NCBI RefSeq assembly: GCF_918698085.1
Contig: NZ_CAKKLP010000003.1
Span: forward strand, 62,001 to 126,000
From: Chryseobacterium sp. Bi04
GTDB lineage: Bacteria > Bacteroidota > Bacteroidia > Flavobacteriales > Weeksellaceae
Reading direction: 5' to 3'
Length of the DNA stretch: 64,000 nucleotides
Shown here in pieces: positions 3,665 to 55,107 of the stretch. The notes under the pieces are model-generated. The model made no database searches. It saw only the letters and a program-made list of their open reading frames with translations, and had not been told where the DNA came from. How positions within the stretch are numbered: the first letter of the stretch is position 1; every line of letters begins with the position of its first letter. The position numbers were made by a program, and so were the translations under genes.

Positions 3665-4534
3665 ATGAAAATATTAATTAGTATCTTAATAATATCTTTT
3701 TTTGTTTTATTCTCGTGCAAAAAAAACTATATCCCTTATTATAATAAGGTCAATGAGATTGACAGTATATATAGGTTAGCCAAAAAACCAAAACTAGCCA
3801 TAAAAGAATATCGATCTCTTTTTAAAAAATATATCCCAAAAAATCAGGAACGTATTAAAGAGTATGAGACTTATATTACTCTTGCAGAACAATATCATGA
3901 AGATTTTGGAGGAAAGGAGAGCCTATATCAATTAATTTCTCTAATCGCTCCTTACGATAAGGAATATATAAAATATCTACCCCTTTTCAACAAATATGGC
4001 ATAGATAGTACAGAAGTTCAGCGGAAAATATCAACCTGGAAAAAGGACTTAAACAGGCAATTAATTGATTCGTTTAAAACTGCACTTATAAGAGATCAGC
4101 AGGGAAGACCTGACGATACTGCATTAGTCCGGAAAAACGTAGAAAAAAATGCAACCCTTTTTAAATGGACATTTAAAAAGTTCGGATTTCCTTCACAGGA
4201 TAAAATAGGAAGTTATCCCATGCTTACATTAATCAGTCATATGTCTGAATCAAAAGCTCTTTATCCATATTTAGAAACTAAAATATTAGAATATGTAAAA
4301 TCTGGAGACTGTCCTCCACTTGATTATTCAATAATGGTAGACGGATATCAGTTCTTACCTGGTAAAGGTACATATTATGGTATGGGAAGAAGCTTTCTAA
4401 AAGAAATAGATTCTGCTTCAATAAATCGCCATAGAAAAAGTATTGGTCTTCCGAGTTTAAAACATGCCGCTATAATTAAGAAAGATTTTTTAAAAAAGCT
4501 CAAGGAAAATGATACTAATTATATCAAGGAATAA
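3665..4534 (+). CDS. Hypothetical lipoprotein of the grasp-with-spasm operon
   Basis: This is a 289-residue protein from the ATG that begins a lipoprotein signal (MKILISILIISFFVLFSCKK, lipobox LFSC with Cys18). An in-frame ATG 16 codons earlier would only lengthen the basic start. The mature part is Lys-rich and helical, with no motif I recognise; segments such as KEYRSLFKKYIPKNQERIKEYETYITLAEQ hint at a TPR-like helical fold. Its last 26 nt overlap the ATP-grasp gene, so the two are likely translated together. Export to the periplasmic face suggests a role in product handling, immunity or surface attachment rather than modification; this is inference. Confidence 0.7.
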   Translation: MKILISILIISFFVLFSCKKNYIPYYNKVNEIDSIYRLAKKPKLAIKEYRSLFKKYIPKNQERIKEYETYITLAEQYHEDFGGKESLYQLISLIAPYDKEYIKYLPLFNKYGIDSTEVQRKISTWKKDLNRQLIDSFKTALIRDQQGRPDDTALVRKNVEKNATLFKWTFKKFGFPSQDKIGSYPMLTLISHMSESKALYPYLETKILEYVKSGDCPPLDYSIMVDGYQFLPGKGTYYGMGRSFLKEIDSASINRHRKSIGLPSLKHAAIIKKDFLKKLKENDTNYIKE

Positions 4535-43568: not shown

Positions 43569-45875
43569 ATGTACAACAATTTTGAACAGCTGTTTTACCG
43601 TGGAGAACTGGAGCAGTGTATTGCTGAGGGCGAAAAATATTTATTATCCAATCCTGACAATGAAGAGGTATTATTTTTAATGGCAGTGGCTCATCATGAC
43701 AGCGTGTATGAAGAAGGACATGAAGAAGTATACAGTGCTATACATGATAAGGTAATTCCTTATCTCCGCAAAATCCTAAAGCTAAATCCCAACAACCTTA
43801 AAGCACTTTATAATATCCTGGATTATCCTTTAAGCAACGAATATACATTGATGCAGATAGGCAGGATGAAAAAACATATTATTGAAGCCAATAAGGCCGA
43901 ATTCATAGCATATGCGGAACGTTTACTGGATCATGCAGGATACGAAGCCTACGGCTATGACTTTTTAGTGAAAATATATGAATCCCTGGGTGAAAATGAA
44001 GCTCTTTTAAACAGTCTTGAAGCTGGAATATATTACTTTCAAAGAGCATTTGCAGACAACCGTGAGCTGAGGGATAAGAATACCTCATTGTTCTGGATCA
44101 AAAAAATCTATCTGCTGGACCGCGAAAAAATGATCTCAGGAGAGGAATTAATAAGTCTTATTGAGCAGGGACACCTCACTTTTGTAAGCAGAGATGATTA
44201 TGATTTTATCAACCTTGCGGATATAGCTTATGAAAATAATGCTCCGGATCTTTCATTGAAGATGATGCTGAAAGCTATTAAAGGGACTAACAGTGCTTTA
44301 CATATACAGGAAAAGCTCGTAGAATGGCATCATCGTTTTGCAGAATTGATTCAAAAGGGGTACAGCCCATCTGATATTTTCTATTATCAGCTGATCATTG
44401 AAAGAAACTATGCTGACCTGCTGAATGTTTCTGAATATTTTTATTATGAGCATGCTCTTGAAGTGATTACTACACATCCGGAACTTTTCTCAGGCTACCA
44501 TTTTGCCGGAACCTATCTCTATGAAAATAAACGCTATGCTGAAGCCATACCCTTCCTGCAAAAGGCTGTGATATTATCATCAAATGTAACGGCATGGAGA
44601 CGGAAAGCAGAATCGGAATATCATCTTTATAAAGTGATACCGGCTGAAATTCCTGCATTTTCCGATTTCCCCACAGACATTTACAACGAAGGGGTTTGTA
44701 TCGATGAGTTTATAGAAGAAATAGAGGATGAAAGTGATAAGCTGCAATGGATAGATGTGAGCCGTATGGTATATGAGCAGGCTGATAAAGCTTTCCGAAG
44801 ATATTATAAAGAAGGAAAATTTGAAAGCGATTATTACAATGACCTGCATACCAGAGCGATGTGCTGTAATAACTTAGCCATCAAATATGTATTGCAGGGA
44901 GATCATGATGCTTCTGCTGCCAAAGCTTCTGAAGGGCTTACATATTCAGAGTTCAGGGAACTTCATCTTGTAAGAATAGATGCTTTATTAGAAGGTGAAA
45001 ATGATGAAGAGACTGCGGAAGCACTGAACGCCTATTTTAGTCTCTATGATGATGAAGACGAAGACTATTTCTATAAAAATTTATACTATAAAGCACGCCA
45101 AATTGAGGTTCATTGCCTGCTGGGATGCGATAATGTTTACAAGAATGCTGAGGAAATGCTTACTTATTTTTATCAGCACACTATGGAACATCCTGAAATT
45201 AATGACTACGACTACAGGGATCTGGAGGCAGGAAAAAACGTTTTGGAGGAAATAATGTATCAGCGTCTGGATACCGAAGATCATATAACCAGACAATCTT
45301 ATTATGAAAAACTTGCCGAACGCTTTCCCCGGGAACCTCATCCACAATATATTCTGATGCAGATCTATAATGAGCACGAAGATTACAGAAAGGTTACCAT
45401 TACTGCCCATAAATATTTGGAAAGCAAAAAAGATTTTCTGCTGGATGATTTCGACAGGGCTAAAACACTCTATATGATGGTAAAGAGCAACTATTTTCAT
45501 GGAGCATATCAGGAAGCAGCGTCTGTCTTTAGTGACCATGATGCTTTCAATGCCGAAATCATGGATCCTGAAGATTATGTGCTTTGGCTTAGCTACGGAG
45601 TTAGAGTTTATAGTAAACTAAATCATAAAGACCATACTTTATCACTTGCTGAAAGGTTTTCTATTATCTATCATGATGAAGAATGGGGATATGACAAGCT
45701 AATGGAGGGAGTAGAGCTGGCAAAGGCCGCAGTTTTGTACCAATCCGGCAATCTTAAGGAAGCACACATTCTATTGGATTATGTGTGTTCATTTCCAGAT
45801 TATAATTCTATTGCTGATGAATACAGGGCATCATGGAAAAAACCGGGACTGTTTTCTAAATTCGGCTTTAACTGA
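43569..45875 (+). CDS. Large TPR-repeat cytoplasmic protein
   Basis: This is a 768-residue protein with no signal or membrane segment. Many helical hairpins of TPR type appear, for example YRGELEQCIAEGEKYLLSNPDNEEVLFLMA at the start, GTYLYENKRYAEAIPFLQKAV mid-protein and YQSGNLKEAHILLDYVCS at the end. The middle is very acidic (DDEDEDYF). This is a scaffold or adaptor type; no partner is indicated. It reaches a shared hairpin with the convergent peroxidase gene. Confidence 0.8.
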   Translation: MYNNFEQLFYRGELEQCIAEGEKYLLSNPDNEEVLFLMAVAHHDSVYEEGHEEVYSAIHDKVIPYLRKILKLNPNNLKALYNILDYPLSNEYTLMQIGRMKKHIIEANKAEFIAYAERLLDHAGYEAYGYDFLVKIYESLGENEALLNSLEAGIYYFQRAFADNRELRDKNTSLFWIKKIYLLDREKMISGEELISLIEQGHLTFVSRDDYDFINLADIAYENNAPDLSLKMMLKAIKGTNSALHIQEKLVEWHHRFAELIQKGYSPSDIFYYQLIIERNYADLLNVSEYFYYEHALEVITTHPELFSGYHFAGTYLYENKRYAEAIPFLQKAVILSSNVTAWRRKAESEYHLYKVIPAEIPAFSDFPTDIYNEGVCIDEFIEEIEDESDKLQWIDVSRMVYEQADKAFRRYYKEGKFESDYYNDLHTRAMCCNNLAIKYVLQGDHDASAAKASEGLTYSEFRELHLVRIDALLEGENDEETAEALNAYFSLYDDEDEDYFYKNLYYKARQIEVHCLLGCDNVYKNAEEMLTYFYQHTMEHPEINDYDYRDLEAGKNVLEEIMYQRLDTEDHITRQSYYEKLAERFPREPHPQYILMQIYNEHEDYRKVTITAHKYLESKKDFLLDDFDRAKTLYMMVKSNYFHGAYQEAASVFSDHDAFNAEIMDPEDYVLWLSYGVRVYSKLNHKDHTLSLAERFSIIYHDEEWGYDKLMEGVELAKAAVLYQSGNLKEAHILLDYVCSFPDYNSIADEYRASWKKPGLFSKFGFN

Positions 45876-45885
45876 TTAAAGTAAT

Positions 45886-45939
45886 ATTGAATATCATGCA
45901 GAAAGCCGGCTTTTGCCGGCTTTCTGCATGATATTCAAT
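45886..45939. terminator. Perfect 25-bp hairpin between convergent genes
   Basis: Two 25-nt arms (45886-45910 and 45915-45939) are exact reverse complements around TTTT, with centre GAAAGCCGGC/GCCGGCTTTC. This is about twice the usual stem length, and the arm reaches the stop codon of the peroxidase gene. It lacks a long T run on either strand, so it is a strong but atypical bidirectional terminator or mRNA 3' end. Confidence 0.82.
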
Positions 45940-47153
45940 TAATTAATAAATGGGTTTGACCATTTTTTATCTGTGTAAACATTTTTTCCGGTAAGGGTTT
46001 TCATAAAGGCAATAACCGCCTTTTTCTCTGCTGGTGTAGCATTTAAGCCTCTTAACCGAAGGTTGTTATCCAGTTTATTGTTTCTGGGATCTTGTGGAAT
46101 ATTATTATAATGATCTATTACCTGCTCCAATGTAGAAAACACGGCAGAATGCATCATAGGAGCATGAGGCTGCCCATTGGAATTGACAAGATCCCGCATT
46201 GAAGGAGAATTGGTAACCGTAAGATCTATATCAGTGCTCCCTATTTTATCAATGACGCCATTATTACCACTTAACGCACTCATTCCAAATTCCGGAGCCA
46301 GGTGACAGCTTGCACAGCCTAAACCACCTCCTGCGCGGGTTCCACGCACTGCAACAGGAAATTCCATGAACAGCTTTTTTCCAAGGTTTTCTTCTGCGGT
46401 GAAGTTAGGGAAATCAAGAAAATCTGATGCAATCATAGTTCTTCCTTCATCATATTTTGAATCAAAAGAGATGATACTGCTGACAAATTGGGCCAGCGCT
46501 TTCTGCATTTTTTCTTCAGTGATTTCCGGGCTGCCATATGCTCTTGTAAACAGTTCTTTATAATAATCCAACCCCTGAAGTTTTGTAATAAGATTATTAA
46601 ACGACGGGGCTCCGTTCGTACCACTATAACCCATTTCCAAATGATCTTTGATAGGAATGGTAGTCTGGGTATCCAGAGAGGTTGCTCTTTTGTCCCAGAA
46701 TAATCTGGCTTCCTCTGCAAATCTCACATTGATCAACCTCATGGAATGCCTGCCCGTTGTTCCGTTTACTCCCTGGCTGGCTATTTTATTATCTCCAAAT
46801 GCCAATTCCTGTTTATGACAGCTGGAACACGAGACGGTATTGTTGCTGGACAGCTTCTTATCATAAAATAAAACCCTTCCCAAGGTAGCCCCTTCATTTG
46901 TAATACGATTAATGAACGGAATATTGTTCCTGAATATATACATTGGAATATTTTGATTGGCATAATTGGGTAAACTGTTGAAGTCTATATTATCCCCAAA
47001 ATAAGCAGATAACGATGAGGCATTTCTGGACATTGATAAAGCTGATACTTGAGCATTAGGTTCAGAAATAGGTTCCATTGTCATACTATCGTTGGAACAA
47101 GAATACGTTAGGCTGAGCAAGGCGACTGCCGGTAAGAATAATAATTTTTTCAT
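45939..47153 (-). CDS. Dihaem cytochrome c peroxidase-like lipoprotein
   Basis: This is a 404-residue protein with a lipoprotein signal (MKKLLFLPAVALLSLTYSC, Cys19). Two haem-binding CxxCH motifs are present: CSSCH in NTVSCSSCHKQELAFGDNK and CASCH in GGLGCASCHLAPEFGM. The family is the dihaem CcpA/MauG group, usually reducing H2O2 with electrons from cytochrome c, though MauG oxidises a protein substrate. It starts 12 nt after the thioesterase stop on the same strand, with no terminator between, so it may be the last gene of the polyketide-like operon. That link is inference. Confidence 0.9.
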   Translation of the reverse strand: MKKLLFLPAVALLSLTYSCSNDSMTMEPISEPNAQVSALSMSRNASSLSAYFGDNIDFNSLPNYANQNIPMYIFRNNIPFINRITNEGATLGRVLFYDKKLSSNNTVSCSSCHKQELAFGDNKIASQGVNGTTGRHSMRLINVRFAEEARLFWDKRATSLDTQTTIPIKDHLEMGYSGTNGAPSFNNLITKLQGLDYYKELFTRAYGSPEITEEKMQKALAQFVSSIISFDSKYDEGRTMIASDFLDFPNFTAEENLGKKLFMEFPVAVRGTRAGGGLGCASCHLAPEFGMSALSGNNGVIDKIGSTDIDLTVTNSPSMRDLVNSNGQPHAPMMHSAVFSTLEQVIDHYNNIPQDPRNNKLDNNLRLRGLNATPAEKKAVIAFMKTLTGKNVYTDKKWSNPFIN

Positions 47154-47165
47154 TTTTTGTTTTTT

Positions 47166-47912
47166 TTAAGTTAATAGATGGTTTTGATTCAATAGTTGTG
47201 TTACTATCTGAGTAAGTAATCCTGCGGTTTCTTCCGGATGCTGCATCGGGAAAAAATGATTGCCCTTTATTGGAAAGAATTCAGTGTTGCCTGAGGTATG
47301 AAGTTTCCAGTTTTCATAATAAGACAGGGTAGGATATAGCTCATCATCTTCACCCATGATGACGGCTATAGTATTGGATAAAGACATATCTGCCCAATTA
47401 TCATTCTGGTACTTTTCCAATATTTCTACATCTTTTTCCATAATGTCCATTCTTTTTTTATAAATCTTTTGAAAAAGGGGAGCCTCTTTATTTTGTTCGT
47501 ACTTGATAGGTAAAAGGTCAGATAATAATTTATTCTTAGCCTTTTCTGACAAGGTGTGAGGAGGTGACTGGTGGGTAGGCGCTTTCATTCCTGAAACCAA
47601 TACCCCAACCATATTGAACTGATGTTTATTTAATTTGGACGAAACCAATAGGGCTAAAATAGCACCCATACTGTGGCCCCAGATGATAATTGGTCTTTGC
47701 AGAGGTCCCAGACTATCTTTTACATGGGCATAAAGATCATCCACGGCCTCATCCAGAGAGGAGAGTAGCGGTTCTTTATGTCGGAGACCTCTTCCCGGAA
47801 GTTCCAGGCACTTAATCTCCAGTCCTTCAATATTGATCAGGCTGGTTATATTTGAAAATGACATGGATGACCCACCTGCATAAGGAATACAGAATAAAAT
47901 AGGAGTATTCAT
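47166..47912 (-). CDS. Type II thioesterase (GrsT-like alpha/beta hydrolase)
   Basis: This is a 248-residue protein with the GrsT-type start LFCIPYAGGSS. The nucleophile elbow G79-H-S81-M-G is in IIWGHSMGAILALLVSS, the Asp in IAVIMGEDDELYP and the His in KGNHFFPMQHPEE. Length and motifs match type II thioesterases, which clear wrong acyl groups from carrier proteins or release products. It comes two nt after the dehydratase gene in the synthase operon, so it probably serves this pathway's acyl carrier protein. Confidence 0.92.
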   Translation of the reverse strand: MNTPILFCIPYAGGSSMSFSNITSLINIEGLEIKCLELPGRGLRHKEPLLSSLDEAVDDLYAHVKDSLGPLQRPIIIWGHSMGAILALLVSSKLNKHQFNMVGVLVSGMKAPTHQSPPHTLSEKAKNKLLSDLLPIKYEQNKEAPLFQKIYKKRMDIMEKDVEILEKYQNDNWADMSLSNTIAVIMGEDDELYPTLSYYENWKLHTSGNTEFFPIKGNHFFPMQHPEETAGLLTQIVTQLLNQNHLLT

Positions 47913-47914
47913 AC

Positions 47915-48397
47915 TTAAGAAGAGATTTTACTTTTATCAACAGACATCACCGTGATTTTACCTTTTGCACAGACAGAGCCTTCTACGGATGCTTTAACGT
48001 TCACAGAACTGGCTGATCCCTTTTTCCAATCTATGCTGACCTCCAGTTCCAATAAATTTCCTGGAAGTACGGATTGTAAAAAGCTGATCTGAACACTTCC
48101 CAATACTCCCATTGAAGCCGGTTCAGAAGCCGGAATTCTACTGCCGGCTTGCCAGTCCAGACTATCCAGGACCATCATTAATGAAGATGCCTGAGCAAGA
48201 GCTTCGGTAATGAGGACCCCTGGCATGATGGGAAAATCAGGAAAATGCCCTGCAAAATAAGGTTCTCCCATAGAAACAGCTTTAACGGCTTTTAGCCTTT
48301 CCTCTTTTACATATTCGGTGACTTTATCTATGAGTAAAAAAGGGTATCGGTATTTTACTATTTGGGTGATTTGATAGGATTCTAAAATGGCTTTCAT
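47915..48397 (-). CDS. FabZ-like 3-hydroxyacyl-ACP dehydratase
   Basis: This is a 160-residue hot-dog fold protein. It has KYRYPFLLIDKVTEY and the catalytic motif GHFPDFPIMPGVLITEALAQ with H51 and E65, both in the expected places, and a C-terminal strand with VSIDWKKGSASSVNVKA. It is slightly longer than E. coli FabZ. It would dehydrate the 3-hydroxyacyl chain made by the ketoreductase, giving double bonds. No enoyl reductase is present in the operon, so the bonds may remain, as in polyenes. Confidence 0.92.
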   Translation of the reverse strand: MKAILESYQITQIVKYRYPFLLIDKVTEYVKEERLKAVKAVSMGEPYFAGHFPDFPIMPGVLITEALAQASSLMMVLDSLDWQAGSRIPASEPASMGVLGSVQISFLQSVLPGNLLELEVSIDWKKGSASSVNVKASVEGSVCAKGKITVMSVDKSKISS

Positions 48398-48398
48398 A

Positions 48399-49439
48399 CT
48401 ATATGCTGTTTTTTTCTATAATGGTGTAGATTACGGTCCCCGATGGATCTGCCGACAAGACAAGGATGTTTTTTTTGTCTGTTCTGTGAGCGTTTTGCCC
48501 ATTAAATACTGAAATAGCATAGGCAATACCTAACATTCCACCGGCATTATCCAGATCTCCGAATTTATCCTCAGGATACAGTACTGTTACAGGAAGACTG
48601 TTTTCTTTAAATAAACTTTCGAATCTATTGATATGTATTGTAGAAGTTCCGCCGGAGATAATGATCGTATCAGTATCATTTAATTTTATAATGGGGAATA
48701 GCATTTCATATAAATAGGTTTCAAAAGGAATAGCATCTTGGGTATAGGTTTCAGAATGCAGCATTTTAATCCGGGCTAAAGGCTTTCTGTTATCTTTTTC
48801 TAAAGACTCCTGGCGCTCCAGAATCATAGAGATACCCAATTCCGGAGATTTCTCTCGCTGGTTTTTTTGTATTAGTTTCTGATAGGAATTCCGCACTTCC
48901 GTAGAAGCCGTTACTCCATAATCTATAATTCCCAGTTTCAGATGGAGGTAAGCAATATCTAATGCCTGGAGACTTCCTGCCATTCCTGCACATACACTGA
49001 AGTTGGGTCCTTTTATTCCGGTCTGTATAGCCATCTGGCTGGCTGCTGCATTAGCTATTGTACTGGGTGCCTTCATAGGGCTTACTCTGTCCGGTCCCTG
49101 ATTTTTAGCTGTTAAATCGAAAATAAAACAGTCTTCAAGGTTAGACAGTTCCGTCCCGTCATAGAGCCCAATCCTTTCCGGATTGCTTTGTATGTACTTC
49201 CCTAAATCCCGGTTATGAATAGACTGAAATGCTGCATTACAGTAAATCAATGTGGCTTTATTCAGAAAACGCTGGCCTTTGGGTCTTAAAAATTTCTGAG
49301 GATCATGATCTTCAATGATAGAAGAAGATAGGGGCTGATCTCCCAAATTGTTAAGGTATTCATTTATTTCTGTTCCATACGGGCTGTTAAAGCCAATAGC
49401 AGAAATTACAATATCGGTTTTTGGATTAATTTGCATCAT
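48399..49439 (-). CDS. Degenerate ketosynthase partner (chain-length-factor-like)
   Basis: This is a 346-residue thiolase-fold protein overlapping the ketosynthase gene by 14 nt. The nucleophile region is NFSVCAGMAGSLQAL with Cys150 retained, but the two histidines of a condensing enzyme are gone: the first His motif reads SGGTSTIHINRFE and the second reads GDLDNAGGMLGIAYA. It is about 70 residues shorter than the partner. Pairing and overlap suggest a heterodimer in which this subunit sets length or stability, but unlike classic chain-length factors it keeps Cys rather than Gln. The exact role is inference. Confidence 0.85.
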   Translation of the reverse strand: MMQINPKTDIVISAIGFNSPYGTEINEYLNNLGDQPLSSSIIEDHDPQKFLRPKGQRFLNKATLIYCNAAFQSIHNRDLGKYIQSNPERIGLYDGTELSNLEDCFIFDLTAKNQGPDRVSPMKAPSTIANAAASQMAIQTGIKGPNFSVCAGMAGSLQALDIAYLHLKLGIIDYGVTASTEVRNSYQKLIQKNQREKSPELGISMILERQESLEKDNRKPLARIKMLHSETYTQDAIPFETYLYEMLFPIIKLNDTDTIIISGGTSTIHINRFESLFKENSLPVTVLYPEDKFGDLDNAGGMLGIAYAISVFNGQNAHRTDKKNILVLSADPSGTVIYTIIEKNSI

Positions 49440-50670
49440 ATTTACTGAATATTACACTACAGATGTTACCGCCAAAAGCAAAAGAATTACTTAGAATATG
49501 TTCTACATGATGCTCTATTTCCGCAGGTGGCTGTATCTGAAAGTTGATATTAAAAGATTCATCGATTTTTTCTGTATTTCTATTTTTTGGAATTTGCTGG
49601 TGATATAATGATAGAACTGCACTTACCGCTTCAAGAGCACTTGCTGCTCCCATACAATGTCCCAGCATAGACTTTATTCCGTTCACATATAAAGTATTTA
49701 TTTCTTCCCCAAAAACATTACGCATTGCTTTTATCTCATGAGCATCATTGGCTTTTGTTCCGGTTCCATGAGCACTTATGTAGGTAATATTTTTTCTGTC
49801 AATATTACCTGAAACAAGAGCATTAGACATAGATAATGTAGCTCCTGAACCTTCAGGATCCGGTGCTGTAGGATCATAGGCGTCACAAGCCAGTCCATAT
49901 CCTTTTATTTCTCCATAAATCCTTGCTCCTCTGGCCAGAGCATGCTCCAATTCTTCAAGAATTAAAACGGCAGCACCTTCTCCTACAATCATTCCTGTTC
50001 TATCCTGATCGAAAGGTTTGCAATCATTTTTTGACATTGCCCCTAATCTGTAAAATACAGTATAACATGATCTTGTAAATGGATCTGCTCCTCCTGCAAT
50101 GATAAGGGGAGACCGGCCTTCCTGAATCATAGAATAAGCTGTTCCTATAGCATAATTCCCGGCTGCACAGGCCGTAGGGATAACCATATTGGTTCCACCC
50201 AGACGATAATATTTTGCAATACCGGCACTCAGTTCTACAGGTCTGAATCTATTCAGGGTTTCGGCTGCCTTAGGATCGAGTTCTTCATGCTCCATACCAA
50301 GATCCCATTCGTCTACGATACGTTCTACAATATCCTGATTGCCATTCGTTGTTCCCAGGATAATTCCATAGTTATTTTTCTGGCTCAACCTATTTTCCAG
50401 CCCTGCATCTTTTAATCCCATATCTACAGCAGCGGCAGCATAAGTAGCAGCCTTTCCATAAGGCCGGAAATGCTCAATGACGTCTACATTTTGATATTCT
50501 TTTTCAAGATGCACTTCTGCAGCTCTTGTTATTCCTTTATAATTTGAGGAATCCAGCTTGGTAAGATCACTGACTCCGGTATCTCCATTGAGTATTTTCT
50601 TCCAGAAATCATCTTTCTCACAAGCTAGCGGGCTTACAACTCCCATTCCTGTAATAACAACTCTTTTCAT
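49426..50670 (-). CDS. Beta-ketoacyl synthase, catalytic (FabF-like)
   Basis: This is a 414-residue protein with a complete Cys-His-His site: C168 in PTACAAGNYAIGTAYS, H301 in SAHGTGTKANDAHE and H338 in GIKSMLGHCMGAASALE. The N-terminus MKRVVITGMGVVSPLA and the C-terminal NSFAFGGNICSVIF are also standard. It extends an acyl-ACP by decarboxylative condensation with malonyl-ACP. It lies 18 nt from the ketoreductase and overlaps the degenerate partner, the layout of type II KS-CLF pairs. Confidence 0.95.
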   Translation of the reverse strand: MKRVVITGMGVVSPLACEKDDFWKKILNGDTGVSDLTKLDSSNYKGITRAAEVHLEKEYQNVDVIEHFRPYGKAATYAAAAVDMGLKDAGLENRLSQKNNYGIILGTTNGNQDIVERIVDEWDLGMEHEELDPKAAETLNRFRPVELSAGIAKYYRLGGTNMVIPTACAAGNYAIGTAYSMIQEGRSPLIIAGGADPFTRSCYTVFYRLGAMSKNDCKPFDQDRTGMIVGEGAAVLILEELEHALARGARIYGEIKGYGLACDAYDPTAPDPEGSGATLSMSNALVSGNIDRKNITYISAHGTGTKANDAHEIKAMRNVFGEEINTLYVNGIKSMLGHCMGAASALEAVSAVLSLYHQQIPKNRNTEKIDESFNINFQIQPPAEIEHHVEHILSNSFAFGGNICSVIFSKYDAN

Positions 50671-50688
50671 ATTGGTTTTGTGTTTATT

Positions 50689-51444
50689 TTATAAGGTTAA
50701 TCCACCATCAATGACGAATGTCTGGCCGGTCATATAATTGCTTTTTTCAGAACAGAGAAAAGTGACCAGGTCAGCAACTTCCTGAGGAATTCCCATTCTT
50801 TTCATGGGGATCATCTGGTCTATTTTTTTCTTATCCTGTTCATTCATTTGGGCAACCATTTCAGTATCTATAAATCCGGGAGCTACGGCATTCACCTGCA
50901 TATTAAACCTGGCAAATTCTAAGGCAAGTGTTTTGGTAAGGGAGATAATGGCTGCTTTGGAAGCTCCATAATTGGCCTGACCTACAGCACCACGCACACC
51001 GGAAACAGATGAAATATTGATTATTTTTGAATTCTTCTTCCGGATAAATGATTTTATAACCGCCTTGGAAAGAAAATAAGTTCCATTTAAGTTGGTATTG
51101 ATCACGTCTCTCCACATAGTATGGGTCATACTGAAAAATGGTGCATCTGCAGTAATTCCAGCATTATTGATGAGCCCATATAGAGGTCCTAATGAGGATT
51201 TTTCTATAGTTTCTATTAATGACTTTGACTGTTCCTCATCTTGGATATCCGCATGGTATAATGCTATCTTATCGGGAAATTCAACAGAAAGTTCCTGTAA
51301 GTATTTTTCTGCAGTTTCCCGGCCTTGGTTATAGGTGAACGATACAGAAGCTTCTGAAGAAAGTAATTGCCGGACAATAGCTTTCCCGATTCCCCGTCCA
51401 CCACCGGTCACCAGGAAATGCCTGCCGTCTAAGTTAATGTGCAT
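50689..51444 (-). CDS. FabG-like 3-ketoacyl-ACP reductase (SDR)
   Basis: This is a 251-residue short-chain dehydrogenase. The NADP motif is [14 protein letters not shown], the structural motif is INNAGIT, and the catalytic Ser-Tyr-Lys lies in [26 protein letters not shown]. The end has [27 protein letters not shown], normal for FabG. It would reduce the 3-keto group made by the neighbouring ketosynthase. A 57-bp gap separates it from the upstream oxygenase gene. Confidence 0.94.
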
Positions 51445-51501
51445 ATCAAAAATTTAATGTTAATTATAAGTGTTAAAATAGTTTTTATGAAAGGATGATA
51501 A

Positions 51502-52518
51502 TTAATCATAATTTTTATCCATTACATTGTCTATATCGCTTTCATCAGCGGATTTCTTTTTAAAAAACCCGATAGCATCTTCAACATCTTTTTCAAAACC
51601 ATTCGCTTTCCATACTTCTTTATTCTCGTGGTTGCAGACCCCGATTTCTATGAAATACCTCATCATGGGAGCCATGATTCTTGAATTGATTTTTTTTCTG
51701 TTTTCAGCATTCAGAACAGTTGGGATAAGCTCTTTATAATTTTTAAATGCTTTATCTTTAAAACCAACTCTGGCGTATACCATTATACTGGATATGGACA
51801 TGTCCAGCATACTTCTTAGCATGGGAGCTGTAATTTCCCGGGCTTCGTTTAAAAACTCAGGAACAACATCTATAAATTCCCGGATCATATTTTTTCCCCA
51901 TTCTATATGTCTTGCTTCCTCTTTATGGTGTTCTACAGCTACTGCCCGGGAAAGCTTGGAAATTTCCTTGCTGTTACAGTCTTCCATGGCATTGTTTTCT
52001 GCCAGCCATTCTATTAAAATAGTGAGATAGATGGCTTTCAGCGGAAATTCAGACATGGAGGCATTATGGCTGTATATTTCCCGTAAGTTTAAAGGAACAG
52101 GAAACGGAGCAATATTGAAATAATTCATTGCTTTTCGGAATACCATGGCATGTACAATTTCTTCTTTACAGAAATGATGTATATATTGTACTACCTCCGG
52201 AAATCTTTTCAGAGAACCATGATTTACAATTTTCATATAATATTCCGAAACCAGGTTTTCAAATACAATAAATGTATACCACCAGGCTCCCGTTTCATAG
52301 ACAGACAGAAGCCTTCTTTCTTCCTCTGATGCAAGATCATAATACGGAGTTCCATAGATAGAAATATTCTCTCTCTTTTTGAGCCATACCTGATCTGTGG
52401 GTTCATCCCAAGGATGGTCCAGAAGCAGGCTCATTTGCTTTTTCTCAGATGCTTTATTAAGCTTCTCCAGCAGATCTGAAAATTTTGGACTGAGTGTTTT
52501 TTTCTTTAGCGGATTCAT
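51502..52518 (-). CDS. AurF-like diiron oxygenase
   Basis: This is a 338-residue helical protein with two metal-binding pairs, E120-x2-H123 in CKEEIVHAMVF and E201-x2-H204 in HHKEEARHIEWG. Additional Glu residues lie on helices at 87 (FENLVSEYYM) and 170-174 (ILIEWLAENNAM). This set and spacing match the AurF / p-aminobenzoate N-oxygenase family. Known members turn amines into hydroxylamines or nitro groups, but relatives do C-oxygenation, so the reaction here is not certain. Its ATG overlaps the stop of the FAD oxidoreductase gene (4-nt ATGA), so the two are tightly coupled. Confidence 0.88.
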   Translation of the reverse strand: MNPLKKKTLSPKFSDLLEKLNKASEKKQMSLLLDHPWDEPTDQVWLKKRENISIYGTPYYDLASEEERRLLSVYETGAWWYTFIVFENLVSEYYMKIVNHGSLKRFPEVVQYIHHFCKEEIVHAMVFRKAMNYFNIAPFPVPLNLREIYSHNASMSEFPLKAIYLTILIEWLAENNAMEDCNSKEISKLSRAVAVEHHKEEARHIEWGKNMIREFIDVVPEFLNEAREITAPMLRSMLDMSISSIMVYARVGFKDKAFKNYKELIPTVLNAENRKKINSRIMAPMMRYFIEIGVCNHENKEVWKANGFEKDVEDAIGFFKKKSADESDIDNVMDKNYD

Positions 52519-54002
52519 AATTTTGTGTTTTTACTCAATAATTTACCTTGTGTAAAGCCAAAGCACATGGCGGTTTCATAACCCGGACCTCCTGCCCAGG
52601 TGCTGACTAATTTAATTTTGTCATTGGGGAAGTCACTAAGCAGGTTTAAATTGGTTCTGGGGAGCATTTTATAGGCAAAAGCAGAGCCTTTGGTAGCAAG
52701 AGTAAATTTGTAATTTGTTTTTGGTGTTGATGATTCTGTATAGATCAGTTTTCCTTCCAGTTTTGGAAATGTCTTAAGGGCTCTTTTTATAAACTTATCC
52801 TGAATTTTTTGTTTTCTGGCAGTATATTCTTCCTCTGAAAGATGAAACCATCGGTCTCCATGATCCAGCATGACAAGCTGGATGACATAGCCGCCGGCAG
52901 GATCAAACCTATGGTAATTACTTATGCTCAGGGTAAAAAGATCATAATATCTGTCATTTTCAAAGTCTTCTTTCGTAAAATCGTCTCCTGAATCTGAAAC
53001 CAAAAGGTATTCGGGTGAAAATATGTCAACTTCTTCCGGAGGAACCGAGATCACAATGTATACACAAAAATGTCCCCAGCCCACCTCAAAATTATTGATA
53101 ACACTTTGGAAGCGGTCTGTATATTCCTGTTTATTCAGCATTTTCAGCACATCTTCCGGAGGGCAGGTAGCAATTACATTTTTTGCCCGGATCATATTTT
53201 TCCGGGTTTTGACGAGCATATATTCATTATGGTCTTCCATTTCATAGACCGGGTTCTTTTTTAACAGAATCCCCCCGCGATTGACAAATTCTTTAAGCAA
53301 TACATCGGAGAGATGCTGTCCTGTCCCTTTTACATAGGCCTGGCCTCCATAAAACATAGCATACAGACAGTGAAGAAAATAAAAAGCATTCACTTCATTG
53401 GAAATAGACCCCGAATAGATGGCAATAGGACTGAGAACTTCAATGATATCATTTCCTTTAAATATCGTTTCAAAATATTGACGTGCTGTTATTTTAGAGA
53501 GACCCCTGCTTTCTCTTAAAATATCTTTGTTGATGGTATACTCGTTCATCAGTCTTCTGAAAAACATATAATGTTGGTATCCATGGGTTTCTATGTCTTT
53601 AAAAAGCCTTTCTATTCCGGTGATTTCGTCCGGAAAGTATGTTGTAAGAGTCTCTTTAATTTCATTCGGTTCTGAAGGAATTCTGATAAAATTGCCTCTA
53701 TACACTACGGTTCCGATTTCTTCATGCAGATGAAATTCTTCCAGCAGAGAATGAAGTTCCAGTCTTTTTAGAGTATTCCAAAGGTTGCCTACATGCTCTC
53801 TGAGCCCGCTTACTTTATGCTGGCTACAGTCAAAAATGAATTTTCTTTTGTTTCTGTAAAAATTGGTAGCATAGCCGCCTACTTTATGATGTGCCTCGCT
53901 AATGACGACAGAGCGTCCCTCTGTGGCAGCTGTTAAGCCGTATGTTAAACCACAGAGACCCGCTCCAATCACCAAATCATCGACATCAATATTGTCAATC
54001 AT
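52515..54002 (-). CDS. CrtI-like FAD-dependent oxidoreductase
   Basis: This is a 495-residue protein. The N-terminal FAD-binding motif is DDLVIGAGLCGLTYGLTAATEG followed by SEAHHKVGGYATNFYRNKRKF. The C-terminal FAD segment is LVSTWAGGPGYETAMCFGFTQGKLLSK. It fits the phytoene desaturase / amine-oxidase superfamily, but the nearest characterised enzyme cannot be told. It may desaturate or oxidise the acyl chain while it is on the carrier protein. It is the second gene of the operon, 98 bp after the carrier protein. Confidence 0.88.
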   Translation of the reverse strand: MIDNIDVDDLVIGAGLCGLTYGLTAATEGRSVVISEAHHKVGGYATNFYRNKRKFIFDCSQHKVSGLREHVGNLWNTLKRLELHSLLEEFHLHEEIGTVVYRGNFIRIPSEPNEIKETLTTYFPDEITGIERLFKDIETHGYQHYMFFRRLMNEYTINKDILRESRGLSKITARQYFETIFKGNDIIEVLSPIAIYSGSISNEVNAFYFLHCLYAMFYGGQAYVKGTGQHLSDVLLKEFVNRGGILLKKNPVYEMEDHNEYMLVKTRKNMIRAKNVIATCPPEDVLKMLNKQEYTDRFQSVINNFEVGWGHFCVYIVISVPPEEVDIFSPEYLLVSDSGDDFTKEDFENDRYYDLFTLSISNYHRFDPAGGYVIQLVMLDHGDRWFHLSEEEYTARKQKIQDKFIKRALKTFPKLEGKLIYTESSTPKTNYKFTLATKGSAFAYKMLPRTNLNLLSDFPNDKIKLVSTWAGGPGYETAMCFGFTQGKLLSKNTKL

Positions 54003-54100
54003 ATTTTGTGTTGGTTTGTTACAATAAGTTGATTTTGATATATTATTTTATTCCCTACCTGTTCATATTTTAAACAAAATAGAAATAAAAAGTCAAGATT

Positions 54101-54349
54101 TTAGCTTGCTAATTCTTCTTCCAAAACTTTAACAATATCCTTTGGGGTAGTCATATTAGCCAAAAGCTCTTCATCAAGGCTGACCTGAAAATTTCTTTCC
54201 AGTTCTACCAACACTTCAAGCCCCATGAGGGAAGTCATTCCCATATCGTGTAGCAGATTGGTATCCGGCTGAATTTCCTTCGGATTACATTCCGTAATAT
54301 CACCTAAAATCTCGTACACTTTTTCGAATAATTTTTCTTGATTTTCCAT
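54101..54349 (-). CDS. Acyl carrier protein
   Basis: This is an 82-residue four-helix protein with the phosphopantetheine site Ser40 in LHDMGMTSLMGLEVLVELE (the usual DSL motif appears as TSL). It has an acidic surface and the FQVSLDEELLANMTTPKDIV helix 3-4 region. It is the first gene of the operon and the only carrier protein seen. It should hold the growing chain for the ketosynthase, reductase, dehydratase and oxidising enzymes. A dedicated phosphopantetheinyl transferase and loading ligase are not present here. Confidence 0.93.
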   Translation of the reverse strand: MENQEKLFEKVYEILGDITECNPKEIQPDTNLLHDMGMTSLMGLEVLVELERNFQVSLDEELLANMTTPKDIVKVLEEELAS

Positions 54350-54405
54350 AATTTATATTTTAATTTATTATAATGAATGCTTTACTATAGCATAAAAGCA
54401 ATTGA

Positions 54406-54426
54406 TTAGTATAAGTTTTATACTAA
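54406..54426. promoter_or_regulatory. Perfect 9-bp inverted repeat in the operon leader
   Basis: TTAGTATAA, spacer GTT, TTATACTAA: a perfect inverted repeat 57 bp upstream of the carrier-protein ATG, inside the predicted transcript. It may be an operator or an RNA hairpin; no regulator gene lies next to it. Confidence 0.5.
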
Positions 54427-54712
54427 TGCCGATTGTACAATTATAAGTTGGCTGTATTTATCTTTCTATAATGATTCAAATACTTATAATATGATTATGG
54501 ATGGGGGCGAGGCTGATGTATTCGTTTTATGAAAACAAACTATCCTCACACCTTGTCATATATGATTTTCTAATAAAAATAAAGGATAATTACAGACTAA
54601 ACTTACTTTAAGTTGTTAGTGTCTGTTTATAAAAGAATATATTCCATCTGTTTGGGAACCAGATAGGGGGAACTGTTTTTTTTGTGTTTCATTATTTGTT
54701 GGTTTTGTTTGA

Positions 54713-54743
54713 CAAATATACTATACTCAAAACAATTGACAAA
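54713..54743 (-). promoter_or_regulatory. Consensus promoter of the polyketide-like operon
   Basis: On the minus strand, TTTG (54743-54740), 19 bp, then TATATTTG (54720-54713) match the Bacteroidota promoter exactly. Transcription would start near 54706, giving a 5' leader of about 355 nt before the carrier-protein gene. Of the 641 bp between that gene and 54991, this promoter and the inverted repeat are the only features I can support. Confidence 0.72.
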
Positions 54744-54990: not shown

Positions 54991-55107
54991 TTACCTCAAT
55001 GAAGTTCTGATAACCTGAGTGTAGAATTCAACCGTTTTATCAATATCTGCAACGGTTAATACGAGATGGTCTATGTTTTTTATTTCTATAATTTCCTTTT
55101 TTAACAT
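54991..55107 (-). pseudogene. Remnant of a VOC/glyoxalase-family gene
   Basis: A 38-codon frame reads NIDHLVLTVADIDKTVEFYTQVI, the first strand and helix of vicinal-oxygen-chelate proteins, then breaks off at RTSLR and a stop. Intact members run to about 120 residues. The following 270 bp show no continuation, so it is a truncated relic. The metal-binding first His is present (DHLV). Confidence 0.7.

What the first reader, a model, noticed from the sequence alone, without database searches (positions are those of the whole stretch)
45939..54743. Compact type II polyketide/fatty-acid-like operon with AurF-type oxygenase and CrtI-like oxidase
The operon carries an ACP, KS, KS-like partner, KR, DH and type II TE with two oxidative enzymes, and no enoyl reductase, acyltransferase or loading ligase. 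This predicts a reduced, dehydrated, probably polyene acyl-ACP that the FAD enzyme and the diiron oxygenase then modify. It is not the flexirubin/aryl-polyene cluster I know, since it lacks the DarA/DarB enzymes, ammonia lyase and acyltransferases. An AurF-type enzyme without an amine-making gene means either an amine from elsewhere or C-oxygenation. This is the best candidate here for an undescribed pathway.
Basis: partly seen in the sequence, partly recalled or inferred. Interest (0 to 1): 0.85.

Follow-up and report, generated by a model that had tools for sequence, protein, structure and literature searches.

The report
Quinolone-linked polyene synthase, quinolone genes lost
A nine-gene operon in a Chryseobacterium probably builds and oxidises an unusual unsaturated fatty-acid-like chain; sister clusters in other Chryseobacterium, a Flavobacterium and a Photobacterium couple the same machinery to Pseudomonas-type alkylquinolone genes, a combination I found in no paper I searched.

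Summary
Window 45939-54349 (minus strand) is a compact operon: ACP, CrtI-like FAD enzyme, AurF-family diiron protein, KR, KS, KS-like partner (CLF), FabZ-type DH and thioesterase. A conserved Bacteroidetes-type promoter lies at 54743-54713. All nine genes are under purifying selection, the unit is absent from a conserved "empty" site in related genomes, and it is separate from the genome's flexirubin locus. The main result comes from relatives. Eight of 14 Chryseobacterium loci, plus Flavobacterium hercynium and Photobacterium sp. GJ3, carry the same core interleaved with PqsA-E homologues, that is, an alkylquinolone pathway. The window has the form without pqs genes, and its genome has no PqsC. 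Best explanation: the core makes a polyunsaturated acyl-ACP that the FAD and diiron enzymes oxidise. In the long form PqsBC would join it to 2-aminobenzoylacetate; in the window form the thioesterase would release it. Because AurF is kept under strong selection where the anthranilate genes are gone, its substrate is more likely the chain than an aryl amine. The chemistry is inferred, not shown. New variant of a known kind.

The parts
54713..54743 (-). Promoter TTTG-N19-TATATTTG (Bacteroidetes -33/-7 type); transcript would carry a leader of about 360 nt before the ACP gene
   Evidence: Pattern found at the matching place in 5 of 6 loci of this form; no Rfam family in the leader
54101..54349 (-). 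Acyl carrier protein, 82 aa, Ser in MTSLMG motif
   Evidence: PF00550, 53.6 bits; Ser conserved in all 16 aligned loci including Photobacterium
52515..54002 (-). CrtI-superfamily FAD oxidoreductase, 495 aa; stop overlaps the AurF start (ATGA)
   Evidence: PF13450/PF01593; best NCBIfam CrtD 97.6 bits, far below cut-off 549.7; no PDB relative by sequence
51502..52518 (-). AurF-family diiron protein, 338 aa; candidate metal ligands E87, E120xxH123, E170, H197xxxE201xxH204
   Evidence: PF11583 80.1 bits; ligand-type residues invariant in Chryseobacterium/Flavobacterium and kept in Photobacterium
50689..51444 (-). Ketoreductase (SDR, FabG-like)
   Evidence: PF13561 210.7 bits; FlxB cut-off not reached
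49426..50670 (-). Ketosynthase with intact Cys-His-His (TACAAG, HGTGT, GHCMG)
   Evidence: PF00109/PF02801; motifs invariant; PDB best 9s5h_B, then 6kxd ketosynthase
48399..49439 (-). KS-like partner (chain-length-factor type), 346 aa, no catalytic His motifs, overlaps KS gene by 14 bp
   Evidence: Only PF00109 N-domain; best PDB 9s5h_C; its Cys is Ser in Photobacterium
47915..48397 (-). FabZ-type 3-hydroxyacyl-ACP dehydratase
   Evidence: PF07977; FabZ models 122-123 bits; His/Glu motif HFPxxPxMPGVLxxE kept
47166..47912 (-). Type II thioesterase, GHSMG serine
   Evidence: PF00975 82.8 bits; aligned in 15 loci
45939..47153 (-). MauG/CCP-like di-heme lipoprotein (two CxxCH), last gene of the operon
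   Evidence: PF03150 154.8 bits; follows TE in all six short-form loci and follows the long form in four loci read through, plus partial copies in L029-L032

Best explanation
The operon is the acyl-chain-making and chain-oxidising half of a larger polyene-alkylquinolone system that has lost its quinolone half. Inferred mechanism: malonyl units (from housekeeping FabD) are loaded on the dedicated ACP; KS-CLF, KR and DH run cycles of condensation, reduction and dehydration with no enoyl reduction, giving a conjugated polyenoyl-ACP; the CrtI-like FAD enzyme dehydrogenates or isomerises it and the AurF-family diiron enzyme oxygenates (or desaturates or halogenates) it while ACP-bound. In the long form PqsA, D and E make 2-aminobenzoylacetate from anthranilate and PqsBC condenses it with that chain to a 2-alkenyl-4-quinolone. 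In the window form PqsA-E are absent, so the thioesterase would release the modified acid, and the MauG-like lipoprotein acts on it, or on its damage, outside the cytoplasm. Shown here: gene content, intact catalytic motifs, purifying selection, promoter, discrete insertion, pqs linkage in relatives and its absence in this genome. Inferred: every chemical step and the direction of evolution.
For: Domains and motifs. Purifying selection on all nine genes. Same core interleaved with pqs genes in relatives; PDB best hits of those genes are PqsD 359 bits vs 228 for the next enzyme, PqsC 221 vs 120, PqsB 44 vs 20, PqsE 114 vs 39; the ligase is benzoate/anthranilate-CoA-ligase type. Photobacterium has the same order across phyla at 31-51% identity for the main enzymes. 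Window genome has no PqsC, only FabH-like matches at about 33%, and no pqs remnants at short-form loci. In the tree the short form is one clade sister to one long-form clade, with other long forms outside (support 94).
Against: No metabolite or expression data. The rooting rests on a very distant outgroup (branch 2.9 substitutions per site); gain of pqs genes by the long form is not excluded, though the shared order in Photobacterium makes it less likely. AurF and FAD proteins have no solved sequence relative and the predicted models are poor (pLDDT 40 and 54). TE is no more diverged in the short form than between long-form groups, so its proposed change of role has no sequence support. The partner KS keeps a Cys in Bacteroidota.
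Confidence: 0.6

Rival explanations
1. The AurF-type enzyme is a true arylamine N-oxygenase: it oxidises an anthranilate-derived amine in the long form and an amine imported or made elsewhere in the window form, so the product is a nitro, nitroso, azoxy or N-hydroxy compound.
For: Pfam family is that of p-aminobenzoate N-oxygenase; long-form clusters make an aryl amine; quinolone N-oxides are known AQ products (PMC12012761).
Against: AurF is among the best conserved genes of the short form (dN/dS 0.03-0.09) although the linked amine genes are gone and the genome has no PqsC; long-form clusters also hold FAD monooxygenases of the kind used for N- or C3-hydroxylation.
Confidence: 0.25
2. The FAD enzyme aromatises or isomerises the polyene so that the chain ends in a benzene ring, as isomerase plus desaturation does in cinnamoyl-containing peptides, and the diiron enzyme hydroxylates it; the product is an aryl-polyene-like acid or pigment.
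For: A polyene type II PKS followed by isomerisation, 6-pi electrocyclisation and desaturation is proposed for skyllamycin-type cinnamoyl groups (PMC6510318); the FAD protein is nearest CrtD/CRTISO/CrtI.
Against: No homologue of the dedicated glutathione-dependent isomerase was seen in the operon; the ring step there is not assigned to a CrtI-like enzyme in the papers read.
Confidence: 0.2
3. The operon makes a modified fatty acid that is built into envelope lipid (not a released metabolite), with the MauG lipoprotein as part of envelope redox chemistry.
For: The last gene encodes an exported di-heme lipoprotein, conserved with the operon.
Against: No acyltransferase or export gene is linked; the thioesterase argues for release as free acid.
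Confidence: 0.15
4. The short form is the older state, and the long form arose by adding pqs blocks to it.
For: The short form is simpler; the root is poorly placed.
Against: Photobacterium and F. hercynium, outside the Chryseobacterium sister pair, both have the interleaved order.
Confidence: 0.15

Closest known systems
Polyene / highly reducing type II PKS (ishigamide, aryl polyene, cinnamoyl systems)
   Same: Discrete KS-CLF, KR, DH and ACP, no ER; KS relative in PDB includes 6kxd
   Different: Single KS-CLF pair, no known isomerase, ligase or NRPS; adds CrtI-like and AurF-family enzymes and a MauG lipoprotein
Pseudomonas/Burkholderia pqsABCDE-hmq alkylquinolone clusters (architectures A-D of PMC12012761)
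   Same: Long-form sister clusters hold PqsA-E homologues, mostly with anthranilate synthase
   Different: Window lacks them; long form adds a built-in type II PKS with FAD and diiron enzymes; hosts are Bacteroidota and Photobacterium, not among the four genera listed in that paper
Koreenceine kec cluster (PMC6498172)
   Same: Gram-negative type II PKS with ACP and KS-CLF
   Different: kec has two KS-CLF pairs, aminotransferase and reductases; the second pair and aminotransferase are not here
Cispentacin/coronafacic acid type II PKS-like cassettes (PMC10698177)
   Same: AmcF/AmcE/AmcB models match weakly
   Different: All below curated cut-offs; DH here is FabZ-like, no cyclising decarboxylase
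AurF N-oxygenase and CylC-type dimetal halogenases (PMC8406957)
   Same: Dimetal-carboxylate ligand pattern; CylC acts on fatty-acid-derived chains
   Different: No close sequence relation to solved members; reaction unknown

Membership tests
Highly reducing type II PKS | KS with Cys-His-His plus partner KS lacking the catalytic set | tested here: met
   KS motifs invariant; partner has no HGTGT or GHCMG-type motifs; its Cys is Ser in Photobacterium
Highly reducing type II PKS | Discrete KR, DH and ACP, no linked ER | tested here: met
Highly reducing type II PKS | Polyene product | not testable with these tools
   Needs reconstitution or metabolite analysis
Flexirubin / dialkylresorcinol cluster | DarA/DarB and Flx enzymes in the locus | tested here: not met
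   No such gene in the operon; KR 229.5 bits vs FlxB cut-off 340; DarB over cut-off is on another contig
pqs-type alkylquinolone cluster (window) | PqsA, B, C, D present | tested here: not met
   Not in the locus; no PqsC in the genome
pqs-type alkylquinolone cluster (long-form relatives) | PqsA-E homologues, each closer to Pqs proteins than to FabH or other enzymes | tested here: met
   PqsB, C, D, E best PDB hits are the Pqs proteins; for PqsA only the aryl-CoA ligase class is shown
AurF family | Pfam gathering score and ExxH ... HxxxExxH ligand pattern | tested here: met
   80.1 bits vs 29.6; residues conserved
AurF family | Arylamine N-oxygenation | not testable with these tools
   Enzyme assay needed
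CrtI/CrtD/CRTISO carotenoid enzymes | Curated model cut-off | tested here: not met
   97.6 bits vs 549.7 for CrtD, 59.8 vs 586.9 for CRTISO, 37.1 vs 238.1 for CrtI
Cispentacin AmcB/E/F | Curated model cut-offs | tested here: not met
   AmcF 233 vs 325, AmcE 65 vs 140, AmcB 22 vs 80

The most novel reading that the evidence does not exclude
A cross-phylum hybrid system in which a dedicated polyene type II PKS, with a CrtI-like and an AurF-family enzyme working on its ACP-bound chain, supplies PqsBC to make oxidised polyenyl-4-quinolones; the window shows a derived form that sheds the quinolone half and releases the chain itself. It would be a fifth alkylquinolone cluster architecture, the first in Bacteroidota, and a new role for an AurF-family enzyme on a polyketide chain.
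Probability: 0.45. Interest if true: 0.78.

Novelty: new variant of a known kind. Interest (0 to 1): 0.62.

Why it matters
Alkylquinolones are signals and antimicrobials known from four proteobacterial genera (PMC12012761). Finding PqsA-E homologues interleaved with a polyene-type PKS in Chryseobacterium, Flavobacterium and Photobacterium extends that chemistry to a second phylum and predicts a new side-chain class. The window's quinolone-free form is a natural subtraction experiment: whatever AurF and the FAD enzyme do, they are still kept without the quinolone genes. That makes an AurF-family reaction on an acyl chain directly testable.

Tried and rejected
Flexirubin or aryl polyene: rejected. 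Koreenceine and cispentacin: gene sets differ or cut-offs missed. Hidden pqs genes elsewhere in the window's genome: the 43% match to PqsD (L035, 40% in BLAST) is a FabH-type protein, similar copies are in the other short-form genomes tested, and no PqsC was found. Decay of pqs genes at short-form loci: no remnants. Thioesterase shift of role in the short form: dropped, since TE identity is as low between long-form groups (47%) as between forms (45-50%). Leader riboswitch: no Rfam match; short leader ORFs are not conserved. Structure route: the AurF model (pLDDT 40) was not searched; the FAD model (54) was searched, and its top Foldseek hits include gamma-carotenoid desaturase and CrtI but with TM about 0.25, so it is not used. 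Wider sampling: AurF relative in 12 of 173 Chryseobacterium species, none of 394 other genomes drawn from the phylum, 1 of 299 Flavobacterium. Literature: no paper found on a Bacteroidota pqs cluster or an AurF plus polyene type II PKS; only the open-licence PMC library was searched.
Full report
WHAT IS THERE. The window lies in a Chryseobacterium genome (5.07 Mb, window = contig C3:62001-126000; named relatives). From 54349 down to 45939 on the minus strand run nine genes: ACP, CrtI-like FAD enzyme, AurF-family protein, KR, KS, KS-like partner, FabZ-type DH, type II TE and a MauG-like di-heme protein. Spacing is operon-like: FAD and AurF genes overlap by 4 bp, KS and its partner by 14 bp, and the other gaps are 1 to 98 bp. 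The downstream neighbour (TPR protein, 43569-45875) is on the plus strand, so the operon ends there. It has an N-terminal signal ending in Cys and two CxxCH haem motifs (sequence), so it is probably an exported lipoprotein.

BOUNDARIES AND REALITY. A perfect Bacteroidetes-type promoter (TTTG-N19-TATATTTG; consensus from my own knowledge) starts at 54743 and is found in five of six loci of this form, 341 to 405 bases before the ACP start codon. dN/dS against four relatives is 0.015 to 0.13 for all nine genes, with one ACP comparison undefined because dS is saturated. In three related genomes the same flanks (TPR gene, and DUF2306 with NUDIX genes) are present with no cluster between them, only a protein of about 820 aa. 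So 45939-54349 behaves as one presence/absence unit.

CATALYTIC MOTIFS. The KS keeps Cys-His-His in all 16 aligned loci; the partner lacks the His motifs, and its Cys is Ser in Photobacterium, so it is best read as a chain-length-factor type partner. ACP Ser and DH His/Glu motifs are kept. The AurF-family protein keeps E87, E120xxH123, E170 and H197xxxE201xxH204, the spacing expected for a three-His dimetal-carboxylate site (ligand spacing of AurF itself is from my own knowledge). The FAD protein has a Rossmann motif and is nearest carotenoid desaturase/isomerase models but far below their cut-offs.

RELATIVES CHANGE THE PICTURE. AurF relatives occur in 12 of 173 Chryseobacterium species, 14 loci. 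Six loci have the window's short form: ACP-FAD-AurF-KR-KS-CLF-DH-TE-MauG. Eight have a long form, and two genomes carry both. In the loci read in full the long form adds three blocks: an aryl-CoA ligase, a PqsB-like and a PqsC-like protein before the ACP; a PqsD-like, a PqsE-like and an FAD monooxygenase between AurF and KR; anthranilate synthase I and II after the TE. Flavobacterium hercynium has the first block, PqsD and PqsE, but no linked anthranilate synthase. PDB searches place these genes: PqsD 359 bits against 228 for the next enzyme, PqsC 221 against 120, PqsB E = 2.4e-10 with the next at 0.0035, PqsE 114 against 39; the ligase groups with benzoate and anthranilate ligases. The PqsD-type proteins keep the Cys-His-Asn motifs and the PqsC-type proteins a Cys-His pair without the Asn motif (read from the sequences).

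CROSS-PHYLUM CASE. Photobacterium sp. GJ3, a gammaproteobacterium, carries ligase-PqsB-PqsC-ACP-FAD-AurF-(108-aa protein)-PqsD-PqsE-KR-KS-CLF-DH, then a DUF3995-like protein and an FAD monooxygenase, at 31-51% identity for the main enzymes (about 21% for PqsB). The order is the same as in Bacteroidota. This argues that core and pqs genes have belonged together for a long time.

WHICH FORM CAME FIRST. A concatenated tree of seven core proteins puts the short form as one clade (support 100), sister to the main Chryseobacterium long-form clade, with F. hercynium and the second C. phosphatilyticum long form outside (support 94). With the Photobacterium gene order this favours loss of the pqs genes in the short form. 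The outgroup branch is very long, so this is likely, not proven. No pqs remnants were found at short-form loci, and short-form-only genomes have no PqsC.

MECHANISM. From the established enzymology of the families, KS-CLF, KR and DH without ER should give a conjugated polyenoyl-ACP; malonyl loading by housekeeping FabD is inferred, as reported for cispentacin. AurF and FAD genes sit directly behind the ACP gene in every cluster read, including Photobacterium. They are retained under strong selection where anthranilate synthesis and activation are not encoded nearby. I therefore infer that they act on the ACP-bound chain, with oxygenation, desaturation or halogenation all open; CylC-type enzymes show that dimetal-carboxylate enzymes can act on fatty-acid-derived chains (PMC8406957). 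In the long form PqsBC, which accepts acyl thioesters (PMC12012761, PMC4807248), would join the chain to 2-aminobenzoylacetate. In the short form the TE would release it. The role of MauG is unknown; it is found with all six short forms and with the long forms of the sister clade that were read far enough downstream, but was not seen in the two outer long forms.

COMPARISON AND NOVELTY. The 2025 survey of alkylquinolone clusters lists four architectures in four proteobacterial genera (PMC12012761). I found no paper describing a Bacteroidota pqs cluster, nor AurF with a polyene type II PKS. The library holds open-licence papers only. Each half is of a known kind; the combination, and its reduced form in the window, is a new variant. 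The chemistry is inference throughout.

Noticed in passing
L029 4570-20310; L033; L034; L045 10686-24580: Apparent alkylquinolone (pqs-type) clusters with built-in polyene PKS in Chryseobacterium, Flavobacterium hercynium and Photobacterium sp. GJ3.
   Followed up: yes
L067, L068, L069 (related Chryseobacterium): Empty site: the cluster's flanking genes are conserved without the cluster; a protein of about 820 aa lies between them.
   Followed up: partly
window 54991-55107 (minus strand): A 38-codon stretch resembling the start of a glyoxalase/VOC-fold protein, just upstream of the operon; possibly a gene remnant.
   Followed up: no
L028 7637-7711: In Chryseobacterium sp. PMSZPI the operon follows a tRNA-Asp gene, a common integration spot.
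   Followed up: partly
G000 contig C1:28672-29802: A true DarB (flexirubin) gene lies elsewhere in the window's genome, separate from this operon.
   Followed up: partly
L045 16939-17265: A 108-aa protein resembling SCP2-like lipid carriers (my reading, not tested) sits between AurF and PqsD in the Photobacterium cluster.
   Followed up: no
L033 18534-18950; L045 22973-23398; L054 (reversed) 3769-4185; L053 1624-2133: A small membrane protein resembling DUF3995 (named by eye, not tested) recurs at the end of long-form clusters.
   Followed up: no
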